IMG/VR virus record: IMGVR_UViG_3300030117_002091
Coordinates: 1 to 22,524 of that record
Strand: one strand, 5' to 3'
DNA: 22,524 nucleotides
DNA from: a virus
In this document: one piece after another, positions 271-20,000 of the stretch
Numbering within the stretch: the stretch's first letter is position 1
How the letters are laid out: each line of letters starts with the position of its first letter
The notes under the pieces: generated by a model
What the model saw: only the letters and a program-made list of their open reading frames with translations
What the model was told of the DNA's origin: nothing
The model's database searches: none
Position numbers and translations under genes: made by a program

Positions 271-3200
271 ATGCCTCTATCGCAAGCGAATAATAGACTA
301 TATACTAGAAGCTCACAACTTGTTGGACAAAATGCATCAGGATTAGATATTGATGGCTTATCTGATATTGGAGAAGCTATTGCCGATGCTGATTTATTTA
401 TTATTGATAATGGTGGTGGTGGAACAAATGTTAAAACTGCTGTAACAAGAATACCTACATATGTCTTTTCAGGAATTTCTGGGGCTATTACAATAAACTC
501 TTCAGGAGTTGCTTCTTTTGGAACTGATGCACAGGGAACAAACCTAACCTTAAGTGGTAATCTTACCGTAAATGGTACTACAACAAACGTAAGCAGTACA
601 ACGGTTACTATTGATGACCCCCTATTTGCACTGGCCGACAACAACTCAGCAGACTCTGTTGATATTGGTTGGTATGGTAAGTATGTAGATAGTGGTACAA
701 AATATTCTGGATTATTTAGAGACGCATCTGATTCCGATATGTGGAAGCTTTTTGCTACTACAGGAAACAGTAATGCGGCACCTTCAACTACAGTAGACAC
801 TACATCTGGATTTACTTTAGCTAATTTATCAGTAAACGAATTGACAGGTACTATTGCTACCGCTGCCCAAGGTAACATTACATCATTAGGTACACTTTCT
901 GCATTGACTGTAGATGATGTAGCTATTGATGGTAAAGTTGTAACTATGACTGGCTCATCTGGTGATACTGCAACGCTTACTGTGGGTACAAATGGTACTC
1001 TTGATATTACAACCACTGATACAGCTGCAGCCGCAGCTAATATACAAATCACTGCAGATGGTACAGCTGAATTAGCTGGTACTACAGTTACATTAGATTC
1101 CTCCGGTGGAGTAACCATTGACGCTAGTGGAGGCACAATTACCTTCGCAGATGATGGGGCTTCATTAGGAACTATAACATCTAGCGGATATTCTGGAACA
1201 GCAGCCGTAGCAACCACAGTTACCATTACTGACAATGAAAGTACTGATGAAGATAATGCGGTTGTGTTTACAGCCGGAGGAGACGTTGATGGTGGTAACC
1301 TTGGGTTAGAATCCGATGGTAACTTAACATACAATCCATCAAGCGGTACTCTTACATCCACTGTTCTTAGTGGTTCGTTAGCAGCATCTAATATTTCAAA
1401 TATTGCGAGTCTATCAGAAATTTCTTCAGTAGCAAATGACGATGTTTTTATAGCAATTGATACATCTGGCGGGGGGTTGAAAAAAATTACTCGGTCAGCC
1501 ATTGTGTCTGGACTAGCATCTTCGGCAGCTATTTCAAACGTTTCAGAAGATAGCACACCTCAATTAGGTGGCGACTTAGATGTAAATAGTAACGACATTG
1601 TATCTACATCAAATGGTAATATTAGTTTGTTACCAAATGGTTCAGGTAAAGTTGTTATGGATGGTAATGGAAGTTCCGGAGGGATTAGTATATCTGATGG
1701 AACAATAGATATTAGAACCGGAACAGGTTCTGTAGCTAAAGTTTTATTTTATTGTGAGTCATCAAATGCTCACGCTCAAACAGTACAAGCACAACCTCAT
1801 AGTGCTGGAGTAACAAATACTCTTACACTTCCAGCCGGTGGTAATGGTGAGCTTGTAAGTACAGTAGCTACACAAACACTTACTAATAAATCTTTAGGAA
1901 GTGATTTAGATATCTTTGAGGATGCAAATAATGCGGATGTAAAACTAACAATGGGAACAAGTGCTACTGAGTCTTTGACAATACAAGTGCTCAACGGTAG
2001 TAGCAACAAGACTGCCGAAGAAGTTCACTTTAGTACTGCCACCGCATCAGGAACGGGCGACCACGGTAAAATGGTATTTGACGTTGATGGTACTGATATT
2101 GCCGAAATAGATGATAGTGGTATAAACCTAGCAAGTGGAAAAACATTCAGAGTAAATGGAAGTGCCATTGCAACTTCTGACACAACCTATACCGCTGGAG
2201 ATTTATTAGATTTAGATGGAACTGAATTTGATGTTGACCTAACAGAAGCGGGTGAGGCGGCAATTGCTAATGGAGACTATATATTATTTTTAGATGGTGG
2301 TGCTACAGGAACTCATGCTAAAGAAGCAATAGCAGATGTAGCAACTTTGTTTGCAGGAACAGGACTTACTGCAACTAACTCTGTTATAGCCGTTGATTCA
2401 TCACAAGCAATCACAGCACTTACTGGTGGAGATTTAACTATTTACGAAGACGCAAATAATGCGGACGTTTCATTTAAAATGGGGACAAGTGCTACGGAAG
2501 CTTTAAGCATAGAAGTTCTTAATGGTAGTGGCAATAAAACAGCTGAGTCAGTTACTTTTTCAACCGCAACAGCATCCGGTACTAGTGACCATGGTAAGTT
2601 TACATTCAATGTAGATGGTACGGATATATTTGATGTTGATGATTCAGGAATAAACTTAGCTTCTGGTAAGACTTTTAGAATTAATGGAACTACTATAGAT
2701 GGTGATATAACTAGTGTGGTTGCCGGTACAGGTTTATCTGGGGGTGGAACAGATGGAGATGTTACACTGAATGTAGAAGCGTCTCAGGCTATTACAGCAT
2801 TAACTGGTGGGGACCTAACTATATACGAAGATGCAAACAACGCAGATGTTTCACTAAAACTAGGAACATCAGCAACAGAGTCCCTTAGTATTGAAGTGTT
2901 AAATGGAAGCTCTAATAAAACTGCCGAAGAAATACATTTTTCAACAGCAACTGCTTCTAGTACAGCAAATCATGGAAAGATGGTGTTTGATATTGACGGC
3001 ACCGACCAAATGGAAATTAATGATAGTGGAGTATCTATAACAGGAGACTTGACTATTACTGGTGATGATTTGTTTATGAACACAAATACTGCTGGGCATA
3101 TTTTAGTAGGTGATGACACAAACTATAATCCAGTAGCTGTAAGTGGGGATGTAACCTTATCATCTAGTGGTGCGGTAACAATAGCGAATGATGCTGTAGA

Positions 3201-3390
3201 ATCTGGAATGCTAAATGACAATGTAATTTCAGGGCAAACAGAAATATCATCAGGATTAGCAGACGCAGACGAATTATTATATTCAGACGGGGGCACATTG
3301 AAGAAAGTAGGATTAGATACATTGACAACACATATTAACTCTACTGCAGCTTCAAAAGGATTTGCTACAGCAATGGCAATAGCACTATAG
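271..3390 (+). CDS. Large repeat-rich tail fibre / virion adhesin protein (fibre 1)
   Basis: This 1039-residue protein is very rich in Ser, Thr, Gly, Ala and Asp, with no Cys-rich or membrane segment. The ATG at 271 follows GGGGGAG at 256-263, which overlaps the previous stop. Residues about 85-190 hold a 'LTVNGTTT...IDDPLFALADNNS' block typical of marine phage fibres, and TQTLTNKSL lies just before residue 545. An 89-residue module repeats at residues 545-633, 721-809 and, less completely, from 848. A separate short motif, ADAD-hydrophobic-D-gap-K, occurs four times (near bases 379, 1405, 2257 and 3255). The C-terminus, KGFATAMAIAL, is a short hydrophobic cap. Family knowledge says such proteins are trimeric beta fibres that bind the host surface; the receptor cannot be inferred. 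It shares its 89-residue module with the next fibre. No S74 chaperone domain is present, so folding may need a partner. Confidence 0.8.
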   Translation: MPLSQANNRLYTRSSQLVGQNASGLDIDGLSDIGEAIADADLFIIDNGGGGTNVKTAVTRIPTYVFSGISGAITINSSGVASFGTDAQGTNLTLSGNLTVNGTTTNVSSTTVTIDDPLFALADNNSADSVDIGWYGKYVDSGTKYSGLFRDASDSDMWKLFATTGNSNAAPSTTVDTTSGFTLANLSVNELTGTIATAAQGNITSLGTLSALTVDDVAIDGKVVTMTGSSGDTATLTVGTNGTLDITTTDTAAAAANIQITADGTAELAGTTVTLDSSGGVTIDASGGTITFADDGASLGTITSSGYSGTAAVATTVTITDNESTDEDNAVVFTAGGDVDGGNLGLESDGNLTYNPSSGTLTSTVLSGSLAASNISNIASLSEISSVANDDVFIAIDTSGGGLKKITRSAIVSGLASSAAISNVSEDSTPQLGGDLDVNSNDIVSTSNGNISLLPNGSGKVVMDGNGSSGGISISDGTIDIRTGTGSVAKVLFYCESSNAHAQTVQAQPHSAGVTNTLTLPAGGNGELVSTVATQTLTNKSLGSDLDIFEDANNADVKLTMGTSATESLTIQVLNGSSNKTAEEVHFSTATASGTGDHGKMVFDVDGTDIAEIDDSGINLASGKTFRVNGSAIATSDTTYTAGDLLDLDGTEFDVDLTEAGEAAIANGDYILFLDGGATGTHAKEAIADVATLFAGTGLTATNSVIAVDSSQAITALTGGDLTIYEDANNADVSFKMGTSATEALSIEVLNGSGNKTAESVTFSTATASGTSDHGKFTFNVDGTDIFDVDDSGINLASGKTFRINGTTIDGDITSVVAGTGLSGGGTDGDVTLNVEASQAITALTGGDLTIYEDANNADVSLKLGTSATESLSIEVLNGSSNKTAEEIHFSTATASSTANHGKMVFDIDGTDQMEINDSGVSITGDLTITGDDLFMNTNTAGHILVGDDTNYNPVAVSGDVTLSSSGAVTIANDAVESGMLNDNVISGQTEISSGLADADELLYSDGGTLKKVGLDTLTTHINSTAASKGFATAMAIAL
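1903..3039 (+). repeat. Three copies of an ~89-residue fibre module (R1-R3)
   Basis: The copies start at 1903 (R1, to 2169), 2431 (R2, to 2697) and 2812 (R3, to about 3039, tail diverged). Shared landmarks are DANNADV, GTSATE, VLNGSSNKTAE, FSTATAS and DGTD. R2 and R3 are also both preceded by AITALTGG. The protein sequence is strongly conserved, while the codons used are largely different from copy to copy. A fourth copy lies in the next fibre gene. Confidence 0.9.
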
Positions 3391-3410
3391 AATTTTTAGT
3401 ATTGAGAATA

Positions 3411-3418
3411 GTATAATA
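3411..3418 (+). promoter_or_regulatory. Candidate phage promoter -10 element (GTATAATA)
   Basis: GTATAATA lies in the 46-base gap between fibre 1 and the small virion gene at 3437. It is embedded in an inverted repeat with arms ATAGTA (3408-3413) and TACTAT (3420-3425). I see no TTGACA-like -35 box at normal spacing. The same octamer occurs in the gaps at 10006 and 11887, which is the main support for a regulatory role. Confidence 0.45.
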
Positions 3419-3436
3419 TTACTATAGGAGAAATAA

Positions 3437-3763
3437 ATGGCACAAGATTTTGAAAGACATATACAAAGAAGTGTAGGAACTTCAGGGGCAACTGTGTTCA
3501 CTGCAGATGGTGATGATGCAGTTGTTAGCTTAAGATTAACTAACATTCACACTGGTACTATTGTAGTAGATGCTTATGTTACTGTAAGTAGTGCCGATTA
3601 TTATTTAATTAAACAGGTTTCAATTCCTACAGGTTCTTCCCTAGAGCTAATTGATGGTGGTAGTAGATTTGTTTTAGCAAATGGAGATGCCTTAAAAGTA
3701 GATACCGACACAGCAAGCTCACTAGATGTATGGTGTAGTGTTGTTGGTGACATAAGTACGTAG
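3437..3763 (+). CDS. Small beta-rich virion structural protein
   Basis: This 108-residue protein has no charged tail, signal peptide or membrane helix. Alternating hydrophobic strands suggest a beta-sandwich. The core pattern 'VSIPTGSSLELIDGG...ALKVDTDTASSLDVW' resembles a small structural protein seen in tailed marine phages; this is pattern recall and not a database match. The SD AGGAG (3426-3430) precedes the ATG at 3437. The stop TAG (3761-3763) is part of the AGGAGG site of the next gene, so the two are translationally coupled. Its position just before the fibre cassettes suggests a decoration or adaptor protein, which is inference. Confidence 0.6.
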   Translation: MAQDFERHIQRSVGTSGATVFTADGDDAVVSLRLTNIHTGTIVVDAYVTVSSADYYLIKQVSIPTGSSLELIDGGSRFVLANGDALKVDTDTASSLDVWCSVVGDIST

Positions 3764-3775
3764 GAGGACTACACA

Positions 3776-6232
3776 TTGGGATTCGTTGGTAAAAAACCTA
3801 GTAGAGTTGCTCTAACTTCAGATGACATAACAGATGGTGTAATAGTAAATGCTGATATAAACGCTTCAGCTGCTATAGCTATGTCTAAGACAGCCTTTAG
3901 TGCTGGGAATGGTGTTACTCTATCAACTAACACTTTAAACGTTGATGCGGCACAAACAACAATAACATCTTTATTAGCAACTGATATAAAAATCGGAGAA
4001 GATGACCAAACCAAAATTGACTTTGAAGATACTAATAAAATTAACTTTTACGCAAATAATGCAAAAGAAGTTGAATTAGCAGAAAACAGTTTATCACCGG
4101 GAAGTAGTGACGGAACTGCATTGGGTACAACAAGCCTTATGTGGTCAGACCTTTTCCTAGCGTCTGGTGGCGTTATTAACTTAAATGATGGTGACGTTAC
4201 AATTACACATGCTTCAGGAAAACTAACAAGCACTGGAGACTTAGAATTACTAAGAGATGCTAATAATGCTGACGTAAAGGTAACTTTAGGTACATCAGCA
4301 GCAGAATCACTTATTATCCAAGTACTTAATGGTAGTTCAAACAAGACTGCAGAAGAAGTACATTTTTCTACTGCGACAGCGTCAGGAACTGCCGACCACG
4401 GTAAGATGGTATTCGACATAGATGGTACAGATATACTAACTATAGACGATGGTGGATTAGTAATAAAAACTACAGGTACAATTGGTCCTGTGGGCGATGA
4501 AGATTTAATAACATTAACTGCTAGTGGAAATATAGTAACAGTAGCTGGTGAACTATCAGCAACTACACTTGATATTGGTGGTACTAATATTACATCTACT
4601 GCTGGAGAGCTAAATCTTTTAGACGGTTCTGCTAAATCTACATCTTCAATTACTCTTGCCGATGCAGACGCATTTATTGTAATTGATGGTACAACTACTA
4701 AGCAAATTCCAGCATCTGATATAAGTACATATATTGGTAGTGGTGGTGGTACAACAGATTTGGTTGCTGATGGTAGTATCTCAGCTGGTGATAGGGTTGC
4801 TATAACATCTGCTGGTAAAGCTAAAACAGTCGCTGCCCTACAAACAGGTGTCAATAATACAACCCTTACTGCAATACAAAACAATGGTATCCAGTCTTCT
4901 TTAGACGCTGCTTATAGCCCAGATGACGACAGGTTTGTAGTTTTATTTAAAGATGGTGGTAATGGTGGAGCTACAACAGCCCAAGTGGTAGATGTAGATT
5001 CTAATGGAGATTTTTCTATAGGTTCCGAGTTCGTTGTAGACAGTTCATCTGGTTTTGTACATGAAATTGAATATGATACAAATGTAAATAGATTTGTAAC
5101 TCTTCATACAGGAAGTGATACTCTCAGGTCTACCATATTGACAGTAGATACTTCAGACAATTCTCTTGGGGGTGGTGCATCCCTTGAGCAAAACCTTACA
5201 GGTAGTGGAGCCTTTGATGCCGATGGTACCGGTTCTTCAGCCGAGTTAGTTTTTGACCCAGACAACAATAAAATGTTTGCTATATATTCACAAAATGACG
5301 AAGTATTAGGTCAGGTGCTGACTGTTAGTGCATCTTCAATATCAGTGGGAACTGCAGCTGATATACATGGCACAGCAGGACCGGCTTGGTACGCAAATCG
5401 CAAAGGCTTAAAAGCTGCTTACGATACAGCGGCTGACAGAATAGTATTGTGTTGGCAAGACTCTAGCGATAGTAATAAAATGACCTCTGTAGTAATTACT
5501 ATAAGTGGTACAAGCTTTTCAGTAGGTTCAGAAGTTCATGTAACAGAAACTTTAACTTCTGACTCGAATATATATCCTGACATGATTTTTGACGCTACAA
5601 GTGGTAAATTAGTATTATTTTTCTACAATGGCTCTCAAGGTGATGGTGAGGTTTATATAGGAACATGTACAGGTTCTAGCACTAACACATGTTCTTGGGG
5701 TTCTGCAAACGTATTAGTAGATGGAGACGGAAGTTATTACAACGCTTTATTTGATGCAGGTGGTGGAAATATAGTATATGCAATGGAAGACAGAACCAAA
5801 ACAAATGGTACTGATTTAATTCAAGTAGGTGTTGGTTATGTTTCCGGAACGTCATTTATTTCAAAACAACAACAAAAAATGTATACCACATATATAGATG
5901 CAGCAATTCAAATAGTAAGTGGGGGCACTGGGAACAAAATTGTTTTGTTTACAGAAGATGGTACAAGTCTTTATGGAGCTGTTCCTGATTTACCTGACAA
6001 TGCAGGAGCATTTATAGGTATAGCAAATTCAGCAATTTCAGATACAGCAACAGGTACTATACAATTACATGGTACAATAGCTACAAATCAAAGCAGCTTA
6101 TCGGCAGGAGCTTTATATTATCTTACGTCTGCTGGAGGATTAACAACAACAGCAACAAGTTATGCAAAAATAGGGCATGCATTAACTTCAACAACATTAT
6201 TGATTCAAGGAACATTACCAGACGCAACCTAA
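3776..6232 (+). CDS. Tail fibre A with predicted seven-bladed beta-propeller
   Basis: This 818-residue protein starts at TTG 3776, set by AGGAGG at 3762-3767 with an 8-base spacer; the paralogue at 6597 starts the same way. Residues 1-145 are nearly identical to fibre B and are probably the virion-attachment part. Residues 155-227 are a copy of the fibre 1 module. Then come AGELNLLDG and an ADAD..D..K motif (near base 4655). From about residue 365 to 735 there are seven evenly spaced repeats of the type 'YD...DR.V..', near bases 4903, 5063, 5246, 5413, 5582, 5743 and 5908 (about 55 residues each). This fits a seven-bladed propeller, a fold used for glycan or protein binding. Residues 735-818 form a C-terminal cap (FIGIANSAI...) shared in style with fibre B. 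Likely role: receptor-binding fibre. Ligand unknown. Confidence 0.8.
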   Translation: MGFVGKKPSRVALTSDDITDGVIVNADINASAAIAMSKTAFSAGNGVTLSTNTLNVDAAQTTITSLLATDIKIGEDDQTKIDFEDTNKINFYANNAKEVELAENSLSPGSSDGTALGTTSLMWSDLFLASGGVINLNDGDVTITHASGKLTSTGDLELLRDANNADVKVTLGTSAAESLIIQVLNGSSNKTAEEVHFSTATASGTADHGKMVFDIDGTDILTIDDGGLVIKTTGTIGPVGDEDLITLTASGNIVTVAGELSATTLDIGGTNITSTAGELNLLDGSAKSTSSITLADADAFIVIDGTTTKQIPASDISTYIGSGGGTTDLVADGSISAGDRVAITSAGKAKTVAALQTGVNNTTLTAIQNNGIQSSLDAAYSPDDDRFVVLFKDGGNGGATTAQVVDVDSNGDFSIGSEFVVDSSSGFVHEIEYDTNVNRFVTLHTGSDTLRSTILTVDTSDNSLGGGASLEQNLTGSGAFDADGTGSSAELVFDPDNNKMFAIYSQNDEVLGQVLTVSASSISVGTAADIHGTAGPAWYANRKGLKAAYDTAADRIVLCWQDSSDSNKMTSVVITISGTSFSVGSEVHVTETLTSDSNIYPDMIFDATSGKLVLFFYNGSQGDGEVYIGTCTGSSTNTCSWGSANVLVDGDGSYYNALFDAGGGNIVYAMEDRTKTNGTDLIQVGVGYVSGTSFISKQQQKMYTTYIDAAIQIVSGGTGNKIVLFTEDGTSLYGAVPDLPDNAGAFIGIANSAISDTATGTIQLHGTIATNQSSLSAGALYYLTSAGGLTTTATSYAKIGHALTSTTLLIQGTLPDAT
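4238..4456 (+). repeat. Fourth copy of the fibre module (R4), in fibre A
   Basis: This 73-residue copy of the module found three times in fibre 1 carries DANNADVK, VLNGSSNKTAEEVHFSTATAS and DHGKMVFDIDGTD. The protein is closest to R1, yet by hand count about 26 of 50 shared codons with synonyms differ between R1 and R4. Confidence 0.9.
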
Positions 6233-6273
6233 AGGAGATTTAGATGAGTAAAATTTTAGTAAAAAACGACACA
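6233..6273 (+). repeat. 41-bp direct repeat at small gene A start (copy 1)
   Basis: This stretch covers the ribosome-binding site and first codons of the small gene after fibre A. It matches 9235-9275 at 38 of 41 positions (mismatches at repeat positions 11, 30 and 31). The match is far closer at DNA level than the two fibre genes themselves. Confidence 0.85.
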
Positions 6274-6570
6274 AAATTAGTAGTATATGCTTTGGATGAT
6301 GACCAATCGGTAGACATTCAATCAGACAAAACTATAGTAGGAGCATTTGATAGTGGCTCTAGAGGATTTCCGCATATTTCAGATTTAAATAGTAGTAATT
6401 GTACTTTGATTACGGGAGTTACTGTACCATCAGGAACAGATGTAGAAAGCGATGGTTCTACTGCTAGGTGGGTAAACAATAAGTATACTTATGATGATGG
6501 TACTTGGACTAAGGTAAGTGGTTGGAAAGACGAGCCGGGAATAAGTAATCGTTTCTGGGATGGTAAATAG
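6244..6570 (+). CDS. Fibre-cassette small protein A (MSKILV family)
   Basis: This 108-residue protein starts at an ATG with AGGAG at 6233-6237. Its first ten residues, MSKILVKNDT, match MSKILVANDT of the gene after fibre B. A later Asn-x-Lys-Tyr-x-Tyr...Trp pattern (NNKYTYDDGTW here, NGKYLYNGSAF there) is also shared, so the two are paralogues. It is hydrophilic, with no membrane or signal segment. Each copy directly follows one fibre gene, which suggests a partner of that fibre: a tip protein, an adaptor or a folding helper. That role is inference from position; the family is not one I recognise. It lacks the C-terminal TV.RG modules of its larger paralogue. Confidence 0.65.
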   Translation: MSKILVKNDTKLVVYALDDDQSVDIQSDKTIVGAFDSGSRGFPHISDLNSSNCTLITGVTVPSGTDVESDGSTARWVNNKYTYDDGTWTKVSGWKDEPGISNRFWDGK

Positions 6571-6596
6571 TATGATAATAAAGGAGGAATAAACAA

Positions 6597-9236
6597 TTGG
6601 GATTTGTAGGAAAAGAACCAGCACAAGCAGCACTAACGTCAGATGATATAACTGATGGTGCTATTGTTAATGCAGACATTAATGCATCTGCAGCTATTGC
6701 TATGTCTAAAACTGCTTTTTCAGCAGGTACGGGTATAACACTATCTACAAATACATTAAATGTTGACGCAGCCCAAACAGGTATAACCTCCTTACTCGCC
6801 ACAGATATTAAGATTGGTGAGGACGACCAAACTAAAATAGATTTTGAAGACGCTAACAAAATAAACTTTTATGCTAATAATGCGAAAGAAGTAGAGTTAG
6901 CTGAGAATAGTCTTTCTCCCGGTACTAGTGATGGCACTGCTTTAGGAACTACAAGTTTGATGTGGTCAGATTTATTTTTGGCTTCTGCAGGGGTTATCAA
7001 TTTTAACAATGGGGACGCTACTCTTACACATGATGGCACTACAGGATTAACTATTGCGGCAACACCTATATCTATAGACTCAACTGGCGAGTTACACTTA
7101 AACTCTACAACTGGTGATATTAAACTTCAAGATGGTGGTACTGACCAAATTACTTTTGATTTAGATGGTACGGCTGGCGAAGTAATAATGAAACCAGCAG
7201 TTGATTCAGACGACTTAGTTATTTCACAATATGACGGAACAGAGGTTATCCGTATAGAAGACAACGCTAGTTTAGGATTAGTAGGCAATAAATTAAGCAT
7301 TGCTAACTCTTCTAGTGACGTAGTTATAAAACCTCTTACAGACGCTAAAGATATTATATTCCAACAATACGATGGTACAGAAGTAGCTAGAATAGAAGAT
7401 AATGCTACATTTAACGTTTCTTCTGCAGGTAAATTTGCTTATGCAGGAACTGCTGTAACAGCAACAGCCGCAGAACTAAACCTACTTGATGGTGGAACTT
7501 CTGTAGGTGGTTCAATAACACTTGCCGATGCCGATGGGGTTGTTGTAAACGATGGTGGAACAATGAAAACCATTCCAGCTTCTGATGTAAAAACATACAT
7601 TGGTAGTGCAGGACAATTTACAGCTACTGCAGCACAAGCAATAGATGCTGGAGATTCAGTTGGAATGGACGCTACTGGTAAAGTAGCTCCTATTGAGTTA
7701 GGACAAGGAGCTTGGATTGACCATGAGGGAGATAGACATTATGATTATGGAAGTAATTCTGAAAACTCTAATTTTGAATGGATTGATTCTGCCTATGACC
7801 CAGACACAGATAGACATTTAGTTGTTTGGTCAAATGCAGCATATGATGTTTGGTCAGTTGTAGTGGCTGGAAATGATGATGCTTCAAACTCTAATACTGA
7901 GGCAACCTTTGGTACTCCAGTTAAAGTTTATGATGGTGGTTCAGACAAACGCCCTTACTACCCCTTGGTCACATACGATACCACTGCAGATAGATTTTTA
8001 GTTTTTTATTACGTACAAGATAATAGTGATAATTATGACAGTGAAGCTAGAGCACGAGTAGGGACAGTAACAGGAAGTTCTACTAATAGTGTAGCTTATG
8101 GTACTGATACCCAACTTTTAAACCATCAAATGTGTTGGGACAGAATAAGTACTTACTGTGAAAGTGCAAATGTACATGTAACTGCTGGTAGAACCTTTTT
8201 ATATAATAGTGATAATAGTACTAATACAAGTAACCCATATTCTGTAAGTATAGTCGTTACAGGTGGTGGCACAAACACGCCTGCTTTGGGGAGTCAAACT
8301 GTTATTTCTGATGGGAAATATGGTAGTGGTACAGCAAGTGCTATTACTTGGGACGAAACTAATGATAGGGTAGTTTATATTCATTTGGATAATGGTAACG
8401 GGGATGATTATGCTCATGCTATAGCTTCCATTTCTGGTTCAACACTTACTTGGGGTGCCTATGCAGAGTTTGACACAACCCCAACTAGCTCAAGTCAATG
8501 TGGTAGTGCAGTTGTTCATGACCCAGAAACAAATAGATGTGCAGTTTTAGTTTCAAGAAGTGACCAAAACGACTGTGTTTTTTATGTGGCTAATGTAGCA
8601 AATTCTGGGCAAACTATGACAAGTATAACCTTACACGATACTAATGTTATAAGTGACAACTCTGAAAGTTCTGGAACAATGCAACTTCGTATGTATAGTA
8701 CTGCTAAAGCTGGCTTAGGGTTCTGTGCCCTCACAGATTACCAATCAAGCATACAATCATTTCAATTTCAAATTGATGCCGACAATAATGAAGTAGACAA
8801 AATTGGAACTGATGGAGCAGTTGGAGGTAGTTATAATTCAAGGACTACAAGTTATTATACTGTCGACAATGCCTTTACTATATTAGATGATACAGAAGTA
8901 AATGAAATGACTCTCTTTGCTCGTTCTAATACTAACTATCACATGAGATATAGCAACACAACATTTGCAGCTACTAGTAACGCAAATAAAATTGATTACT
9001 GGGTGGGAATAGCCGGAAGTGCTATATCTAAAGATGCTTCTGGAACTATTACAACTGTAGGAGGAAACGTGGGAGGCTTTAGTGGGCTAACTATAGGAGC
9101 ATATTATTCTGTTGGTTCTTCAGGTTCCTATACAGCAACAGATGCTAACAACACTACAAATGATTCTATAATGGTGGGTTTTGCAAATTCGGCTTCTACA
9201 ATACAAGTAACGGGAGCAATGGCTAATTATCAATAG
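6597..9236 (+). CDS. Tail fibre B, paralogue of fibre A, with a diverged propeller
   Basis: This 879-residue protein starts at TTG 6597, set by AGGAGG at 6582-6587 with a 9-base spacer. Residues 1-145 repeat the N-terminus of fibre A with few changes. Residues about 160-285 hold two copies of 'QYDGTEV.RIEDNA' (near bases 7186 and 7321), followed by AAELNLLDGG and an ADAD..D..K motif (near 7519). From about residue 395 to 790 I count seven repeats of propeller type, the clearest being AYDPDTDRHLVVW, TYDTTADRFLVFY, TWDETNDRVVYIH and VHDPETNRCAVLV. They lie near bases 7788, 7970, 8176, 8344, 8510, 8688 and 8870. The propeller sequence is largely unlike that of fibre A. The C-terminal cap (WVGIAGSAIS...) is again related. 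Likely a second receptor-binding fibre sharing one attachment point. Confidence 0.8.
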   Translation: MGFVGKEPAQAALTSDDITDGAIVNADINASAAIAMSKTAFSAGTGITLSTNTLNVDAAQTGITSLLATDIKIGEDDQTKIDFEDANKINFYANNAKEVELAENSLSPGTSDGTALGTTSLMWSDLFLASAGVINFNNGDATLTHDGTTGLTIAATPISIDSTGELHLNSTTGDIKLQDGGTDQITFDLDGTAGEVIMKPAVDSDDLVISQYDGTEVIRIEDNASLGLVGNKLSIANSSSDVVIKPLTDAKDIIFQQYDGTEVARIEDNATFNVSSAGKFAYAGTAVTATAAELNLLDGGTSVGGSITLADADGVVVNDGGTMKTIPASDVKTYIGSAGQFTATAAQAIDAGDSVGMDATGKVAPIELGQGAWIDHEGDRHYDYGSNSENSNFEWIDSAYDPDTDRHLVVWSNAAYDVWSVVVAGNDDASNSNTEATFGTPVKVYDGGSDKRPYYPLVTYDTTADRFLVFYYVQDNSDNYDSEARARVGTVTGSSTNSVAYGTDTQLLNHQMCWDRISTYCESANVHVTAGRTFLYNSDNSTNTSNPYSVSIVVTGGGTNTPALGSQTVISDGKYGSGTASAITWDETNDRVVYIHLDNGNGDDYAHAIASISGSTLTWGAYAEFDTTPTSSSQCGSAVVHDPETNRCAVLVSRSDQNDCVFYVANVANSGQTMTSITLHDTNVISDNSESSGTMQLRMYSTAKAGLGFCALTDYQSSIQSFQFQIDADNNEVDKIGTDGAVGGSYNSRTTSYYTVDNAFTILDDTEVNEMTLFARSNTNYHMRYSNTTFAATSNANKIDYWVGIAGSAISKDASGTITTVGGNVGGFSGLTIGAYYSVGSSGSYTATDANNTTNDSIMVGFANSASTIQVTGAMANYQ

Positions 9237-9275
9237 GAGATTTAAATGAGTAAAATTTTAGTAGCAAACGACACA
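9235..9275 (+). repeat. 41-bp direct repeat at small gene B start (copy 2)
   Basis: This is the partner of 6233-6273, with 38 of 41 bases identical. It lies 3002 bp downstream in the same orientation and at the same offset from the start codon. Confidence 0.85.
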
Positions 9276-10004
9276 CAAAGAATATGGGCTGTACACTCAG
9301 ACTCAGATACTTTAACTGCTGCAGAATTACAAACAGTAGCCACTAATTCTAGTGGGGTTGAAACAGCTATATACGCTATACCTAGTAGCAATTCAACAAT
9401 TTACAATAGCATAACTTTGCCGGGTGATTATGAAAATGGGAAATATTTATATAATGGTTCGGCTTTTGTAAGTAATTCTAAATGGGTAGACCCGGACACA
9501 GTACCAAAAGGACAACCCTGTGGAATGTTAAACGAAGATTTAGATGCATCTGAAACCGAAATAACTTGTAAAGTTATAACAGGCATATTTAATGGAGTAG
9601 CAGAAATTAATAAAAGCATTTTATTTGGGTCAATTAGTGAGGATTTAGATATATCAGAAACTGAAATAGATGTGTCAGATTCTTCTGCTTTAGTAATAAA
9701 TAGAGCATACAAAATAGATAATGAACAAATTTATGTTACTGCTATTAATAGTAATACATTAACTGTAACAAGAGGATATAACTCTACTACGGCGGCTACT
9801 CATAGTAATGGAGCGAACTTAAAAAATATAGTAACTAATAGTATTTATAAATATGATGCGTTAATTCAAATAGAAGGTTCTTCCGAAATTATGAGAGTGA
9901 CAAGTAAAGACAGTAGTGCAAATACTATAACAGTAGTTCGTGGAGTTGAGTCAACTACAGCAGCAACTCATAGTAATGGAAAGACTATTTATTATAGAAA
10001 ATAA
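9246..10004 (+). CDS. Fibre-cassette protein B (MSKILV family) with TV.RG modules
   Basis: This 252-residue paralogue of the 108-residue protein after fibre A has ATG 9246 with AGGAG at 9235-9239, overlapping the fibre B stop. Residues 1-85 are the shared part. The rest is built from a repeated beta module: a first half-copy (NEDLDASETEITC, from about base 9529), then a full copy (from about 9628) ending in LTVTRGYNSTTAATHSNG, and a third ending in ITVVRGVESTTAATHSNG (about 9856-10001). The same module is in the tail-tube and hub proteins of this phage. There is no signal peptide or membrane helix. Function is unknown; the modular build and the position suggest a virion surface or fibre-linked protein. 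Confidence 0.65.
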   Translation: MSKILVANDTQRIWAVHSDSDTLTAAELQTVATNSSGVETAIYAIPSSNSTIYNSITLPGDYENGKYLYNGSAFVSNSKWVDPDTVPKGQPCGMLNEDLDASETEITCKVITGIFNGVAEINKSILFGSISEDLDISETEIDVSDSSALVINRAYKIDNEQIYVTAINSNTLTVTRGYNSTTAATHSNGANLKNIVTNSIYKYDALIQIEGSSEIMRVTSKDSSANTITVVRGVESTTAATHSNGKTIYYRK

Positions 10005-10005
10005 A

Positions 10006-10013
10006 GTATAATA
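10006..10013 (+). promoter_or_regulatory. Candidate phage promoter -10 element (GTATAATA)
   Basis: GTATAATA begins 2 bases after the stop of cassette protein B, in a 59-base gap before the neck genes. No -35-like hexamer is evident at normal spacing. It is the same octamer as at 3411 and 11887. It would start a transcript for the neck and tail genes. Confidence 0.45.
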
Positions 10014-10020
10014 ACAAAGA

Positions 10021-10038
10021 CCCTTTAATAAAAAAGGG
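10021..10038 (+). other. Short stem-loop in the gap before the neck genes
   Basis: Arms CCCTTT (10021-10026) and AAAGGG (10033-10038) enclose a 6-base loop. No T-run follows on the + strand, so it is a poor intrinsic terminator. It sits 9-26 bases past the candidate -10 and would lie near the 5' end of the transcript, where it could protect the mRNA. Confidence 0.35.
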
Positions 10039-10063: not shown

Positions 10064-10318
10064 ATGGCAGAGATAGATGTACAAAGTGAATTACAAGCTG
10101 TAGTTCAAAAAATGGAAGCTTTAATTGAAGATTTAAATAAAGTTAATGCTCGAAGAGAACAACTAGTTGGGCAAATACAAAACCTACAAGGTGTAGTAAT
10201 GTACCTTAGAGGAAAAGATGATACACCAGAAGTAATAAATGAAGGTGGGGTTCCAGAAGAAGTTGTAGAAGCAGCTAAAGAAGCAATAAAAGGTAAAACA
10301 GGAGATAAAGACTCCTAG
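10064..10318 (+). CDS. Small coiled-coil phage protein
   Basis: This 84-residue protein starts at an ATG with AGGAGA at 10050-10055. Residues 1-50 form a long amphipathic helix with heptad-like spacing (Leu, Val, Met and Ile against Glu, Lys and Gln), a likely coiled coil. Residues 52-84 are acidic, then Lys-rich and probably disordered. Its stop TAG (10316-10318) overlaps the SD of the connector gene. The helical coiled-coil type is unlike the beta proteins around it. Small coiled-coil proteins in this position may be neck or scaffold parts, but I cannot assign one. Confidence 0.55.
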   Translation: MAEIDVQSELQAVVQKMEALIEDLNKVNARREQLVGQIQNLQGVVMYLRGKDDTPEVINEGGVPEEVVEAAKEAIKGKTGDKDS

Positions 10319-10327
10319 GAGATATAA

Positions 10328-11443
10328 ATGGCAACAACGGCTGGGGCCGAATTTGATAAGGTTTTTACACATAACGGAAGTAGTTATACTGACGTTACAC
10401 TAGAAGCACAATCCCCTGCGGGAACTTCTTTTTCCGTTCTTGGTGCATCAAGTCATTATTTATATTTAGGGAATGATTCAAAATTTGATATGGCTATATT
10501 TGATGTTGATACTGCTGGAAGTTTAGGAGCGTTAACATGGCAATATTATAATGGAAGTGCCTGGACAACGTTTGTTCCAGCTTCTGCTAGATATCAATTA
10601 GACCCGGATGATAATGAGGGAGGGCAATATGATTTCTCAGAAGATGGTGCAGAAATATTTCCTCCTAACATACTTAGTGATTGGGCAACAGATGCAATAA
10701 ATGGTGAAACCAAATATTATGTTCGAGTAAGTACTGCTAGTGTTACCACTGCTCCTACGATAAAACGTATACAAATGAGGCCTTATGCTGCTTACTGTAC
10801 GACTCAAGACGTGTATAAGTTATTACAACTAAATAACGTTTTAAGTGGTACTGACTTTACAAGTTCTACCGTTCCTAGTAAAGCGTCTGTAGAACAATAT
10901 ATAATGGAAGCACAGTCTTATATAGATATGTTTACAAGAAAATCTTGGAGACCTAATTATGTTGCTAATGAGTACCAACAATTTAATTTGAATGGTTTTC
11001 ATTTAGATAAACCTGATGCATATAAAATTTTAAAACTAGAAATTTGGAATGGTGCTAATTGGGATGAAAAACGACAAGGTAGAACAAAAGATTTCTTTTT
11101 AGTTCCAGATACAAATATGGTACAATTTTCTAGATATTTCTTACTTCCAGCCAGGTTCACGTCTTACAACGCACCTGTATGGAGATGGGGTGGTGGAGAA
11201 TTCACTATGCCTATAAAAGTAACTTACCTACATGGTAGAGATATTCAAACTGATGTTAGACAAGGTGGAGTGGTACAAGATATTGCTAAGAAATTAGCCG
11301 CCATTGATGTAGCAAGAACCGCAGATTTTGGGGGTGCTATTGTAAGTGGTATGGATAGAATGGATATAGCAAGTAGGATTCAATCATGGCAACTAGAAAT
11401 AGAGGATAACCTAGATGCTATGAAAGCATTTGAGGTATTCTAA
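10328..11443 (+). CDS. Head-tail connector (gp6-like adaptor) with N-terminal beta domain
   Basis: This 371-residue protein has two parts. Residues about 156-371 look like the head-tail connector family (HK97 gp6 / SPP1 gp15 type): YCTTQDVYKLL, then an Ala/Glu helix VEQYIMEAQSYIDMFTRKSW, then beta strands and a C-terminal helical end. Family members form the ring that joins portal and tail, but are usually only 100-200 residues. Residues 1-150 form an added beta domain with YYNGSAWTTF and DWATDAINGETKYYVRV, a pattern seen in several phage tail and baseplate proteins. The SD AGGAGA (10317-10322) is shared with the previous stop. The next gene starts in a TAATG overlap, which supports a neck operon. 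The role is inferred from the family pattern and gene order. Confidence 0.7.
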   Translation: MATTAGAEFDKVFTHNGSSYTDVTLEAQSPAGTSFSVLGASSHYLYLGNDSKFDMAIFDVDTAGSLGALTWQYYNGSAWTTFVPASARYQLDPDDNEGGQYDFSEDGAEIFPPNILSDWATDAINGETKYYVRVSTASVTTAPTIKRIQMRPYAAYCTTQDVYKLLQLNNVLSGTDFTSSTVPSKASVEQYIMEAQSYIDMFTRKSWRPNYVANEYQQFNLNGFHLDKPDAYKILKLEIWNGANWDEKRQGRTKDFFLVPDTNMVQFSRYFLLPARFTSYNAPVWRWGGGEFTMPIKVTYLHGRDIQTDVRQGGVVQDIAKKLAAIDVARTADFGGAIVSGMDRMDIASRIQSWQLEIEDNLDAMKAFEVF

Positions 11444-11928: not shown

Positions 11929-14010
11929 ATGGCAATATATCGAAGTGACCAGGCACAACTAACATTTGCTGCTGAATCTGCACAAGGGGGAGACCCGGAG
12001 ATGATAGAGGGAACTCTAGCACGTTCTCCTATACCAACTTTAGGAGCTGCAGCTAGTGCAGGCGATAGAACTATAACACTAAGTGCTGAATTTACAAGAT
12101 TTAACACTTCGGCAAGTGCTGGAGTGCAACTTTACGCTGCTGTTGCAGACACTACCACTACAAGTGTTCAGATTGATAACAATGGTGGTGGAGACCCTCA
12201 ATTATATCTTGGGCAAGTTATACAAGTAAATAGTGAAAGTATGAGGGTTACAGCTATATCTGGTACAAGCAATAGAACAGCTACTGTAGTTAGAGGATAT
12301 GAAGGAACCACTGCGGCTACTCATTTAGATAATGCTGCAGTTAATACAAGATTTACCCCAGGAGATTTTATTAGAATAGGAACTCTTGCAGGTACCGTTG
12401 CAAACACATTAGTACCTCACGAAGTACGTAGAGTTGAAAGTCAATCTGGAACAACAGTAGTTTTAGACAGGCCTTTAGCTTTTGCCCATGCGAGTGGACA
12501 AAACGTAAGGTGTGTTTCTGATTCAGGTGCTGCTACAGCGGAAAGTGCGGCCGATATAAGAAACGATAATGATAAATATATTACATTTATTCCTGGTATA
12601 TATGAAACAGTAGATACCCCAGACCCAGAGATGAGTATTGAAGGAAGAAGATTCCTTAACACACAATCTAAAAGAAACTTTTCAGTTGCTTATGCAGGAC
12701 AACAAACCTTAACAGGGTCCGTGTCAGGTATTATGCTACTTAATGGGTGGCCTTTAAGATTTCCAATAGGTACAGTTAAAACAACTCCAGGGACTCTTGA
12801 AGCAGGAACAATTCTTTTGGATGGAGCAACCGTTAAGGGTGATATGTACTTTTCAGCAAATGGTGCTCAAATAGCTAATTTAGAAGCAGGGGATTATTTT
12901 AGGATTAGTGGGCAAGAAGGTGCAACAACTGATGGTTCTTTTTCTGAGGTAAGGCGAGTGGTATCTGAACCTACAGCAGATAATTTTAAAATAAACTACC
13001 CATTTCAATTTGACCATGTTGACGATTCTGTAATAAATGTGGTTGATTCTAGCAATACTTATTATGAGCATGTTATTGAAGAGGCAACTAACCTTGATAC
13101 AGTTTCATGGCATGTACATATGAAAGATAGTGATTCTGCTGCCGCTACTACTACAAAAGATTTTGATAGAAGATATGTAGGAGGAATGGTAGGTTCCTCT
13201 ACAATAACCGCAGAAGAAGGTGGAATGGTTACAATGTCTTGGGATAGTATAAACTTCCTTAATATGTTGCATAACCAATCAAACCAAAAAACTGTGGGTG
13301 CCGCAATAAATGATGAATACGTTGGTGCTAGTGTGGCAGCTAATATGCCTAGATTTGCTTTGATGCAATCTATTGATGATGCTGATATAGGTGAGCCTAG
13401 TCATAATGCAAACGCTGTTAATAACTCTACAGGTTATCCATCTACTCAACCATATTACTTTTCTGAAGGAACAATAAAGTTTTTTGGTCAAGAGTTTGCT
13501 AGAATTAGAAGTTTTTCCCTATCAATAACAAACAATGAAGAACCACGGTATTATATAGGTAAGCAAGGTGCCAAATCTAGAGGTCCTTATGAAATTAGAG
13601 AAGGAGCTAGAGATTACGGATTATCCGCTTCTGTGGCTTTACCAGATGCTAGTGTTGCGTCTGCAGCTACAGCTGCTAATGCTGACCAAGATGGTGCCTT
13701 AGAACTATTTAGACAATTACTTTTAGAAGGTGATTATGGTGATGGAACTAGTGGTAGCATGAATAGACAAGGTTTTTCTGCTACTATAAAGTTTGAACGT
13801 GGAACTAATGATTACATAATAATTGATATACCAGGTTCATCAACAGCTGGGTCACCAACATCTCCTAGTAGTTCACTAAATGGTCAAGGTATTTTTATAA
13901 ATTCAGCTCCTCATTCAATAACAACTGATAATCCATTTCAAATTGATGTTGATATGATATTTAGGAGTTTGAAAATTACTGTAAGAGATAACGTACCAGT
14001 ATATCCATAA
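11929..14010 (+). CDS. Major tail tube protein, enlarged by inserted domains
   Basis: This 693-residue protein lies where the major tail protein is expected, before the assembly chaperones. The start (YRSDQAQLTFAAES) and the block PGIYETVDTPDPEMSIEGRR near residue 220 fit the N-terminal part of a tube protein. Residues 517-575 (IRSFSLSITNNEEPRYYIGK...GPYEIREGARDYGLSASV) and 603-693 look like the tube beta-sandwich. Usual tube proteins are about 150-350 residues, so roughly half is extra. One insert at about residues 65-140 carries TATVVRGYEGTTAATH, the module also present in cassette protein B and the hub. The inserts would decorate the tail surface (inference). The ATG at 11929 has TGGAGA at 11914-11919. 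Confidence 0.7.
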   Translation: MAIYRSDQAQLTFAAESAQGGDPEMIEGTLARSPIPTLGAAASAGDRTITLSAEFTRFNTSASAGVQLYAAVADTTTTSVQIDNNGGGDPQLYLGQVIQVNSESMRVTAISGTSNRTATVVRGYEGTTAATHLDNAAVNTRFTPGDFIRIGTLAGTVANTLVPHEVRRVESQSGTTVVLDRPLAFAHASGQNVRCVSDSGAATAESAADIRNDNDKYITFIPGIYETVDTPDPEMSIEGRRFLNTQSKRNFSVAYAGQQTLTGSVSGIMLLNGWPLRFPIGTVKTTPGTLEAGTILLDGATVKGDMYFSANGAQIANLEAGDYFRISGQEGATTDGSFSEVRRVVSEPTADNFKINYPFQFDHVDDSVINVVDSSNTYYEHVIEEATNLDTVSWHVHMKDSDSAAATTTKDFDRRYVGGMVGSSTITAEEGGMVTMSWDSINFLNMLHNQSNQKTVGAAINDEYVGASVAANMPRFALMQSIDDADIGEPSHNANAVNNSTGYPSTQPYYFSEGTIKFFGQEFARIRSFSLSITNNEEPRYYIGKQGAKSRGPYEIREGARDYGLSASVALPDASVASAATAANADQDGALELFRQLLLEGDYGDGTSGSMNRQGFSATIKFERGTNDYIIIDIPGSSTAGSPTSPSSSLNGQGIFINSAPHSITTDNPFQIDVDMIFRSLKITVRDNVPVYP

Positions 14011-17022: not shown

Positions 17023-20000
17023 ATGGCTTCCAAGCAAATAGTTTCGTATTGGAATGGAAGTGCTTGGGTAGACTTTACTACTAGTGGCAATTCTGATTTA
17101 ATAAATATGTCTTATACAGAAGCTTTAGGCACGCCTACGGCTATTCATCTTAGGATAAGCAATCCATCTTCTGACCCCTTTGCTAACTCTGGAGCTAGTT
17201 CTAAGGGTCCTTATACAGGTGTTATAACAGATTTTATGCCTATAAAGGTTAGAGACTCAGATTCTGGTCATTTGATTTTTTATGGTGCTGCCACGAATGT
17301 AAACGAAATTTATGACGATACATTTGGAATGGTGCTAGATGTAAATGCAGAAGATTATTTATTTGAATTACGAGATAACTCTACTAGAGGTGCTTATGGA
17401 TACACAATAGGTCCTTCAGATGAAACCTTAGAAGCAGAATTAGCGGTAAGTTTAAATAATTCTGACACTACTTTTACTGTAACGGATACTTCTGAAATGT
17501 TTATAACAGGGTTTATAAAGATTGAAAGCGAAATAATGAAAGTCACTAAGATAAATAGTGCTACTTCTGTTACTGTTACTAGAGCTCAACAAAGTACAAG
17601 TGCCGCATCACATGATGGTTCTAGTACAGCACTAGCTATATCTGAACCTACTGCACCTATATATACAACAGTAGAAAACACAGGTATAAAAGATATTGAA
17701 AGAAAACTATGGAAACAAAATATATCTTCTAGAAGTGGGTTGATAAAATCATTAATCAATCACATGACAGAAAATATTACTCACCCAGGTAATGCGGCTT
17801 CTACAGATGCAAGATTTACAGATTCAACATTAAAGTATAGAGAAAATGAAATTTATGAATTAAGTGGTAAGGGGAAGAAGGCAGCTCTTAGACACATATC
17901 AAAAGCAGCGTCAGAAGAACCACACGCATCTGCGGCAAACAACTCAGAAGATTTTGGGTATGATTTTTATGTAGACCCAAACTTTTCATCTACAGCTACA
18001 AGTCATAAACCAACACCATTTTTTAACTATTTTAAAAAAGGGACTAGACCTACTACAGAAACTGCGGGTCCCCAAGTGTTTGGTCTTAGTTTACAATTAC
18101 CTTCTCCAGACTTAGTTACAGGTGGGAGGTTTGTAGAAACAGGTAGAACAAAAGCTTTATATAACACAGAAATAAAAAGACCTAAGAAAGACATATATAC
18201 AGATGTAGCAGTACAATATGCAGCAGTTTCAAAAGGAGCTAAAGGTGATGGTACAGCCGTTTCAAATGAAATTGTAATGGAAGCTATCGAAATATATGAA
18301 AACACTGGTTTAACTAACTTGGGAGATTTTAGGTGGGATGGTTATGACATAGATGGAGGCACACCAGGAACGGATAGTCCAGAGTGGTTAGCTGCTGTAC
18401 TTACACAATTAAATGGTGCTATTTCAGCTGGTGATACACAAATAACCTTAGATTCTACTGAAGGAATATTCCCTGAAATGATTCTTTCAATCAACCAACC
18501 AAACGCTGGAGAACACATAAAAGTTTTATCTGTTGATTCTGCTACTCAATTAACAGTAGAAAGAGGTTTCACAGGATATGGCTCATCTCTTGGTGATGCT
18601 GATAGAAGTGACGATGCTTTTATATGGGCATTAAGAGTTGCAAAGATTCAATATATAGCAAATACATCTGAAGCAGAGACAGTTACTAGAGCTAATGCGT
18701 GTTTAGCACTTATATCCCACGTAGATAAAGGTGTGAATGAAAGCTCAACAGTTTGGAATACAACAGATGGGTTGTTCAATATATTCTTTGGTGAAAACTC
18801 AGTTGCTCAATTCAAATTAAAATCAAGACCTAGAATGACTTTAGGTATAAGAAGGACATTTAACTTTGCAACTGGCTCTGAAACGGCACCAAACGCTATT
18901 AGAGAAAATGTTGCGGCTGCATTAAGAAGAAGAACATCTTCATCTGCAGAAGGAAAATTAGACACTTACAATCCTCCTGTATATCATATTGATAATGTAC
19001 CAAGTGCAGCTTCCGGGTCTGGAACACAAACAATCACTTATGGTGAAACAACCTTATTAGGTACATTAAGTGATGATATAAACAATTCAGTTACAACAAT
19101 ACCTGTAACTAATACTATAGGTATGTATACAGGTCAAACTATAAAGATAGGTAGTGAAAAAATAACTGTTGGTACAGTTGCAAGTAAAACATCTTTAACA
19201 GGATGTACTAGAGGAGCAAGTTCTACCTCTGCTGCATCTCATTCATCAGGGGCGGCTATAACAGATGCTAGTGTAGATTTAAGAAAGTATGGGCTTAGAC
19301 CTGGTATGTGTGTAAACATATTATCTAGTGGAGTTCCTAGTACTTCTTATGGTTATGTATCATCAGTATCGGCTACACAAATAGTTGTTACCTGGTCAAC
19401 AGGTGGCGTATCTACTAGTTCCCCAACAGATTCTACATTGAGATATTACATACCAGTTAGAGTTGGTGACGTAATACATGTACGAGACGACCTAGCTAAT
19501 ATAGATGCAAAAGCTATGGTTTTGAATATAACATACCAAGAGGGCTCAGGTTCTTCTCTTACTTCTTATCAAGTGGTTAGTGCAGAATCTGCGGAAGAGC
19601 AAGGTGCTCCAAAGAAATCGTTAGTATCAGCTACGGCAGAAGCGACTGCTCAAGAAGAAGGATTACCTCCTACTCCAGAGTTAGCGTCAGACGCTAACGT
19701 TACTACTAGTGTGGTATTTTCTTCGTCATCAGCTAGTCAAGTAAATTGGGCTGCAGGAAACATATACATTGGTGCTGATGTGTATGCTATTTCAGGAGCC
19801 AATACAAGTCAATTAGAAACTTTAAATTCAGATGGTAGAAAATATTATGTATATTACAAAAAAGGTGAAGATAGATTTAGAGTAAAATCAGAATCAGATT
19901 TTAAAAATATTGTCGCTAAAAAAAGAGATAGTGAAATAAAAGTTATAGCCCACGTTCATTATGATTTACCTTATGCTGCTTGGAGCATGGTAGGTATAAA

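What the first reader, a model, noticed from the sequence alone, without database searches (positions are those of the whole stretch)
3776..10004. Tandem duplication of a two-gene fibre cassette
Fibre A plus small protein A and fibre B plus small protein B repeat the same plan: TTG start with AGGAGG, near-identical 145-residue N-terminus, propeller, related C-terminal cap, then a gene starting MSKILV.NDT. The N-terminus is kept and the receptor-binding middle has diverged. This suggests a phage with two alternative or mixed adhesins on one attachment site, each with a matching partner protein. I know of no named system of this form.
Basis: partly seen in the sequence, partly recalled or inferred. 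Interest (0 to 1): 0.7.

Follow-up and report, generated by a model that had tools for sequence, protein, structure and literature searches.

The report
Paired phage fibre-and-partner gene cassettes
This uncultured marine phage carries two different host-binding fibres in a row, each followed by its own small partner gene; relatives and unrelated phages trade such fibre-tip-plus-partner units, so it looks like a natural plug-in system for changing hosts, built on an already known theme.

Summary
Window 3776-10004 holds fibre A (818 aa) + small a (108 aa) and fibre B (879 aa) + small b (252 aa). The fibre N-terminal 145 residues are 90% identical, the propeller regions 20%.

Three corrections. 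(1) The copies are not a recent duplication: synonymous sites are saturated, and B's codons are closer to relatives than to A. (2) Most of the conserved "N-terminus" is a shaft module also found inside other fibres; only about the first 45 residues look N-terminal-specific. (3) The plan is not unnamed: a cultured cobavirus alternates fibres with "tail assembly chaperones", and its last small protein joins the same small-protein domain to Pfam Phage_tail_APC.

Two relatives also carry two tandem pairs. Across seven fibre/small pairs, small-protein similarity follows the propeller (Spearman 0.93) and cap (0.89), not the stalk or N-terminus. A 14-base linker closes these cassettes and occurs nowhere else in nine contigs; at it, two different phages go from 96% identity to unrelated sequence.

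Best reading: exchangeable fibre-tip + Tfa-like partner cassettes, probably both expressed. No invertase or reverse transcriptase was found. Partner binding, chaperone activity and mixed virions are inferred, not shown. New variant of a known kind.

The parts
271..3390 (+). large fibre-like protein (1039 aa) at the start of the fibre locus; shares shaft modules with fibre A
3437..3763 (+). small protein Q (108 aa, MAQDFE..., phrog_1276) after the first fibre-like gene; homologues sit between or after fibre genes in relatives
3776..6232 (+). fibre A, 818 aa, TTG start
3776..4210 (+). conserved proximal 145 residues of A (90% identical to B); residues about 12-145 are a generic marine-phage shaft module
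4211..4732 (+). stalk of A; 89% identical to fibre 2 of L101, only 30% to B and 24% to G001 fibre 2, so swapped independently of the tip
4733..6232 (+). predicted beta-propeller plus C-terminal cap of A; nearest relative G001 fibre 2 (52% propeller, 72% cap)
6244..6570 (+). small partner a, 108 aa, beta-rich MSKI domain
6570..6583 (+). cassette-end linker GTATGATAATAAAG, overlapping the stop codon of a by one base
6597..9236 (+). fibre B, 879 aa, TTG start, same plan, propeller only 20% identical to A
9246..10004 (+). small partner b, 252 aa: MSKI domain (about 1-82) plus two copies of a beta domain also found in the tail-tube and S74 tail-fibre genes of the window
10006..10019 (+). second copy of the linker, GTATAATAACAAAG
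10021..10038 (+). hairpin CCCTTT...AAAGGG between linker and next gene, seen in the same place in relatives; no T-run on the + strand
10064..10318 (+). conserved flanking gene E (MAEIDVQ..., 84 aa), right border of the variable fibre locus
10328..11443 (+). conserved core gene C (371 aa, connector-like by inspection), used as anchor to find 69 related loci

Best explanation
The segment is the variable host-recognition locus of an uncultured marine tailed phage with tape-measure and tail-tube genes. It holds two tandem cassettes, each a full-length propeller-tipped fibre followed by a dedicated fibre-partner protein. The partner's MSKI domain is most likely the equivalent of the N-terminal, fibre-binding domain of tail fibre assembly (Tfa) chaperones: it binds the distal propeller/cap region of its own fibre, helps it fold and trimerise, and may stay as a cap. 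Variant b carries extra virion-type beta domains and probably stays on the particle. Both fibres are probably made together and mount through the shared proximal part, giving a particle with two adhesins. The tip+partner portion is exchanged between phages by recombination, with breakpoints in the shared proximal/stalk modules on the 5' side and at the linker on the 3' side. Shown: gene anatomy, tandem pairs in three genomes, co-segregation of partner with tip, linker specificity, one cross-phage exchange, absence of detectable invertase or RT, and fusion of the same domain to Phage_tail_APC elsewhere. Inferred: binding, folding role, simultaneous display, host-range consequence.
For: Two tandem pairs also in G001 (contig ends 84 bp apart when placed on relative L149, the pairs lying on the two ends) and in L101. 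Small similarity vs propeller 0.93, cap 0.89, stalk 0.12, N-term -0.49. MSKI family hits in 16 of 26 related contigs, all strong hits in the fibre locus. Linker: 12 exact copies in 9 contigs, each at a cassette 3' end, none elsewhere, reversed-pattern control zero. L092 and L113 are 326/341 identical across fibre end + small, then diverge at the linker into a fibre versus gene E. Lentibacter phage ICBM2: propeller-type fibre followed by an MSKI-domain (profile E 3e-18) + Phage_tail_APC (E 1e-18) protein. Pam3 gp25: variable N-terminal domain binds fibre, conserved C-terminal domain trimerises (PMC9608196). No Resolvase or RVT_1 in 7 contigs.
Against: a matches no Pfam or PHROGs family and b only through its beta repeats; both lack the helical Tfa C-terminus, and a's model has no PDB fold match, Mu Tfa included. 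Co-segregation of adjacent genes can arise from linkage alone. L101 has two nearly identical smalls (94%) behind propellers only 44% identical, so matching is not strict. L174 has three propeller-type fibres but one small. The fibre locus lies before the connector-like/tail-tube genes while an S74 fibre lies after the tape measure, so the mounting site is uncertain.
Confidence: 0.62

Rival explanations
1. The small proteins are permanent structural parts (tip adhesin like S16 gp38, cap, or connector to the next fibre), not chaperones.
For: b's C-terminal repeats belong to a domain seen in phage tail and virion proteins and in window genes 17023-20574 and 11929-14010; gp38-type tip adhesins also bind the distal tip of their fibre (PMC7289586).
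Against: The closest annotated relative of the MSKI domain is fused to Phage_tail_APC; a itself has no extra domain.
Confidence: 0.22
2. Neck or head fibres rather than tail receptor-binding fibres: the locus lies upstream of the connector-like and tail-tube genes, and the phage has a separate S74 fibre after the tape measure.
For: Gene order; gene C has an exposed-looking N-terminal half joined to a connector-like half (by inspection).
Against: Propeller tips, high tip turnover and paired partner genes are typical of receptor-binding proteins; gene order is weak evidence for mounting site.
Confidence: 0.12
3. Alternative, not simultaneous, adhesins: a switch or recombination selects A or B.
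For: Conserved proximal modules could recombine; cassettes are exchanged between phages.
Against: Each fibre has its own start and ribosome site, no invertase, no RT, no long inverted repeats; longest exact DNA match between the A and B N-termini is 11 bases, so intragenomic exchange there is unlikely.
Confidence: 0.08

Closest known systems
Cobavirus (Lentibacter phage vB_LenP_ICBM2, Zobellviridae) fibre locus
   Same: Alternating fibre and small tail assembly chaperone genes in a variable region; last pair is a propeller-type fibre plus a protein with the same MSKI domain ([quoted passage not shown]
   Different: Its small proteins carry the Phage_tail_APC C-terminus, absent from a and b; a different, short-tailed phage; its fibres do not share the near-identical N-terminus
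Alteromonas phages A5/V22 fibre + cognate chaperone module
   Same: Marine phages; fibre and downstream partner shared as a module between distantly related phages (PMC10579305, PMC7289586)
   Different: The module as described centres on one primary fibre and one chaperone; homologues of V22 gp27 bear DUF4376, and no relative of a was found by tblastn among cultured phages
Phage Mu / P1 S-U and S'-U' tail fibre cassettes
   Same: Two fibre tips, each with its own assembly gene (own knowledge)
   Different: There one N-terminal part is shared and an invertase switches tips; here both genes are complete and no invertase is found
Pam3 gp24-gp25 (Tfa-type)
   Same: Variable beta N-terminal domain of the chaperone binds the distal fibre (PMC9608196)
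   Different: a and b lack the helical trimerisation domain
Ackermannviridae branched tail-spike complex
   Same: Several adhesins on one branched mount with conserved N-terminal domains (PMC11414711)
   Different: XD-type mounting domains were not tested here; the cited work describes no downstream partner proteins in the parts read

Membership tests
Tail fibre assembly (Tfa/gp38/Phage_tail_APC) proteins | gene lies directly downstream of a fibre gene | tested here: met
Tail fibre assembly (Tfa/gp38/Phage_tail_APC) proteins | matches a curated Tfa/APC profile | tested here: not met
   no Pfam match for a or b; PHROGs hits of b only in its beta repeats; Phage_tail_APC not found in 6 contigs, though that search's controls were also silent
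Tail fibre assembly (Tfa/gp38/Phage_tail_APC) proteins | helical C-terminal trimerisation domain | tested here: not met
   a's model shows strands only; b has beta repeats instead
Tail fibre assembly (Tfa/gp38/Phage_tail_APC) proteins | N-terminal domain shared with an APC-bearing protein | tested here: met
   Lentibacter ICBM2 L176:6001-6414, MSKI profile E 3e-18 plus PF16778 E 1e-18
Tail fibre assembly (Tfa/gp38/Phage_tail_APC) proteins | specific to the distal part of its fibre | tested here: inconclusive
   co-segregates with propeller and cap, which linkage could also cause
Tail fibre assembly (Tfa/gp38/Phage_tail_APC) proteins | needed for fibre folding | not testable with these tools
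   requires co-expression
Invertible tail-fibre segment (Mu/P1 type) | serine invertase | tested here: not met
   no PF00239 in 7 contigs; 10 of 14 control genomes rang; the window's own record is a fragment
Invertible tail-fibre segment (Mu/P1 type) | inverted repeats flanking the tips | tested here: not met
   only a 22-nt local palindrome
Diversity-generating retroelement | reverse transcriptase | tested here: not met
   no PF00078 in 7 contigs; contigs are incomplete except G001, which is nearly so
Alternating fibre/chaperone locus (cobavirus type) | two or more fibre + small pairs in tandem | tested here: met
   window, G001, L101

The most novel reading that the evidence does not exclude
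The locus is a true plug-in array. The fibre-tip + partner unit is bounded by a conserved shaft module and by a dedicated 14-base linker, so tips swap between phages. Within one genome the repeated parts are held identical in protein but are selected to be dissimilar in DNA, which keeps the array from collapsing by recombination. Support: A and B share 90% of residues but only 36% of codons, at the bottom of 248 between-genome pairs of like protein identity. Weakness: below-chance only at P about 0.02-0.06, no general trend at 80-85% identity, few pairs, and metagenome assembly favours diverged repeats.
Probability: 0.15. Interest if true: 0.72.

Novelty: new variant of a known kind. Interest (0 to 1): 0.45.

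Why it matters
If right, it identifies an unannotated family of fibre-partner proteins (no Pfam or PHROGs name for a) recurrent in marine phages, and explains how these phages keep two host-binding tips while trading them: the tip and its partner travel together up to a recognisable linker. That gives a simple rule for finding cognate fibre/partner pairs in metagenomes, which is needed to express such fibres, and a test case for how tandem near-identical genes are kept from recombining away.

Tried and rejected
Recent tandem duplication: rejected, synonymous sites saturated and B's codons nearer to relatives. Phase variation by invertase and diversification by RT: not found. Fold match for small a: none. 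Sequence matches to solved structures for small and propeller: none. The small-family alignment was too diverse for a contig scan; subgroup alignments were used instead. General recoding against DNA identity: tested on 126 non-redundant loci, no effect at 80-85% protein identity, a deficit only at 85-90% (4 rows, 3 of them independent). A first version of that scan returned no within-genome pairs because whole alignments were thresholded. Promoter-like sites in the locus are no more frequent than in shuffles. Host from bacterial genomes: no relative of gene C in genome contigs.

Full report
WHAT IS THERE. The window is the first 22.5 kb of a 31.6 kb virus record. All genes of interest are on the + strand: a 1039-aa fibre-like protein (271-3390), small Q (3437-3763), fibre A (3776-6232), small a (6244-6570), fibre B (6597-9236), small b (9246-10004), then gene E (10064-10318) and gene C (10328-11443), tail-tube (PF18906), a tape-measure-like protein and a second fibre with an S74 domain.

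DOMAINS DIVERGE DIFFERENTLY. Between A and B the first 145 residues are 90% identical, stalk 30%, propeller 20%, cap 32%. A's C-terminal half is predicted as a beta-propeller (481 PDB matches at E<=1e-3). Residues about 12-145 also occur in the middle of many other marine-phage fibres, so this is largely a shaft module rather than a dedicated anchor.

RELATIVES. Gene C brought 69 related loci. Between Q and E the gene content varies strongly. The nearest large relative, G001 (81.6 kb), has Q - fibre 1 - small 1 - fibre 2 - small 2 - E. Its contig ends fall 84 bases apart when placed on relative L149, whose first 127 bases are identical to the end of G001. L101 also has fibre-small-fibre-small-E. 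So the paired tandem plan recurs in three genomes with different tips. In L101 the first small gene has a TAG where the second copy has a tryptophan codon.

MOSAICISM. A's stalk is 89% identical to L101 fibre 2 but only 24% to G001 fibre 2; A's propeller is 52% identical to G001 fibre 2 but 28% to L101 fibre 2. The small gene goes with the tip: small identity correlates with propeller identity (Spearman 0.93, Mantel P 0.0014) and cap (0.89, P 0.0008), not with stalk (0.12, P 0.25) or N-terminus (-0.49) (7 fibres, 5 for the N-terminus). Linkage alone could give this, so it shows travel as a unit, not binding.

THE LINKER. GTATRATAAYAAAG follows both small genes of the window and is absent from its shuffles. 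Over 12 related contigs it has 12 exact copies in 9 contigs, each at a cassette end, with a zero control. It is followed either by the ribosome site and start of a further fibre or by a hairpin and gene E. The three contigs without it have another last cassette gene (MLIETG or MLLETG...) before E. L092 and L113 belong to phages with different E genes (71% and 47% to the window's) yet share 326/341 bases across the fibre end and small gene; after the linker one continues with a fibre, the other with E. This is direct evidence of cassette exchange.

AGE OF THE REPEAT. In the 145-residue part only 45 of 126 same-residue codons match between A and B (shuffle 52.8, P 0.06); longest exact DNA match 11 bases. 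B shares codons with G001 fibre 2 and L101 fibre 2 above chance (P 0.0004 and below), A with none of them. Yet residues shared by A and B only (18) outnumber those shared by B and G001 fibre 2 only (11), while the reverse holds for synonymous codons (10 vs 35; Fisher P 0.001; with L101 fibre 2 P 4e-6). The stalks of G001's two fibres behave alike (P 6e-4). So protein similarity inside a genome is not explained by recent copying; shared mounting constraints are the simplest reading. Active selection against DNA identity is possible but not established. In an engineered Ackermannviridae phage an added spike gene sharing a segment with its neighbour recombined with it (PMC11414711), so such a pressure is plausible.

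WHAT THE SMALL PROTEINS ARE. The MSKI domain is beta-rich. In 26 contigs every strong hit sits in the fibre locus. No known family is hit by a. The key clue is Lentibacter phage ICBM2: a propeller-type fibre followed by a protein with the MSKI domain (E 3e-18) and Phage_tail_APC (E 1e-18), within an alternating fibre/chaperone array, described as two fibres and three tail assembly chaperones (PMC6775973). In Pam3 gp25, and by proposal in Mu Tfa, the variable N-terminal domain binds the fibre and the conserved helical C-terminus trimerises (PMC9608196). Hence a looks like the fibre-binding half alone; b is that half plus beta repeats of a type found in virion proteins.

CONCLUSION. Tandem fibre + cognate partner cassettes, exchanged as tip+partner units, probably displayed together: a new variant of the known fibre/chaperone module. 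Mechanism steps of binding, folding and mixed display are inferred. L174 (three propeller-type fibres, one small) and L101 (two nearly identical smalls) warn that one-to-one matching is not a strict rule.

Noticed in passing
window 271-3763: A third large/small pair (fibre-like 1039 aa + Q 108 aa) opens the locus; Q-type proteins recur next to fibre genes in relatives, twice in L138 and L131.
   Followed up: partly
L083:1593-5546 (residues 219-272 and 430-483): An intragenic fibre repeat 98% identical in protein (47 comparable codons) shares only 36% of codons: the strongest example seen of protein-identical, DNA-dissimilar repeats.
   Followed up: partly
L101:2152-2403: First small gene carries a premature TAG relative to its near-identical second copy (83 versus 96 aa).
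   Followed up: no
window 10328-11443: Gene C matches haloarchaeal tailed viruses HCTV-1/HVTV-1 (24-26% over its C-terminal half) and nothing else among cultured phages; its N-terminal half looks like a separate exposed domain.
   Followed up: no
window 9492-10001, 17023-20574, 11929-14010: One beta domain (TVTRG...AATHSNG type) is shared by small b, the S74 tail fibre and the tail-tube protein.
   Followed up: no
L251:7182-8393 and L251:3-2966 (G001): The relative G001 encodes quinolinate synthase NadA and a large protein with a NUDIX domain.
   Followed up: no
L174 and L175: Unrelated phage contigs carry three propeller-type fibre genes in tandem directly abutting; in L174 they are followed by one MSKI-type small gene (L175 ends before that point).
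   Followed up: partly
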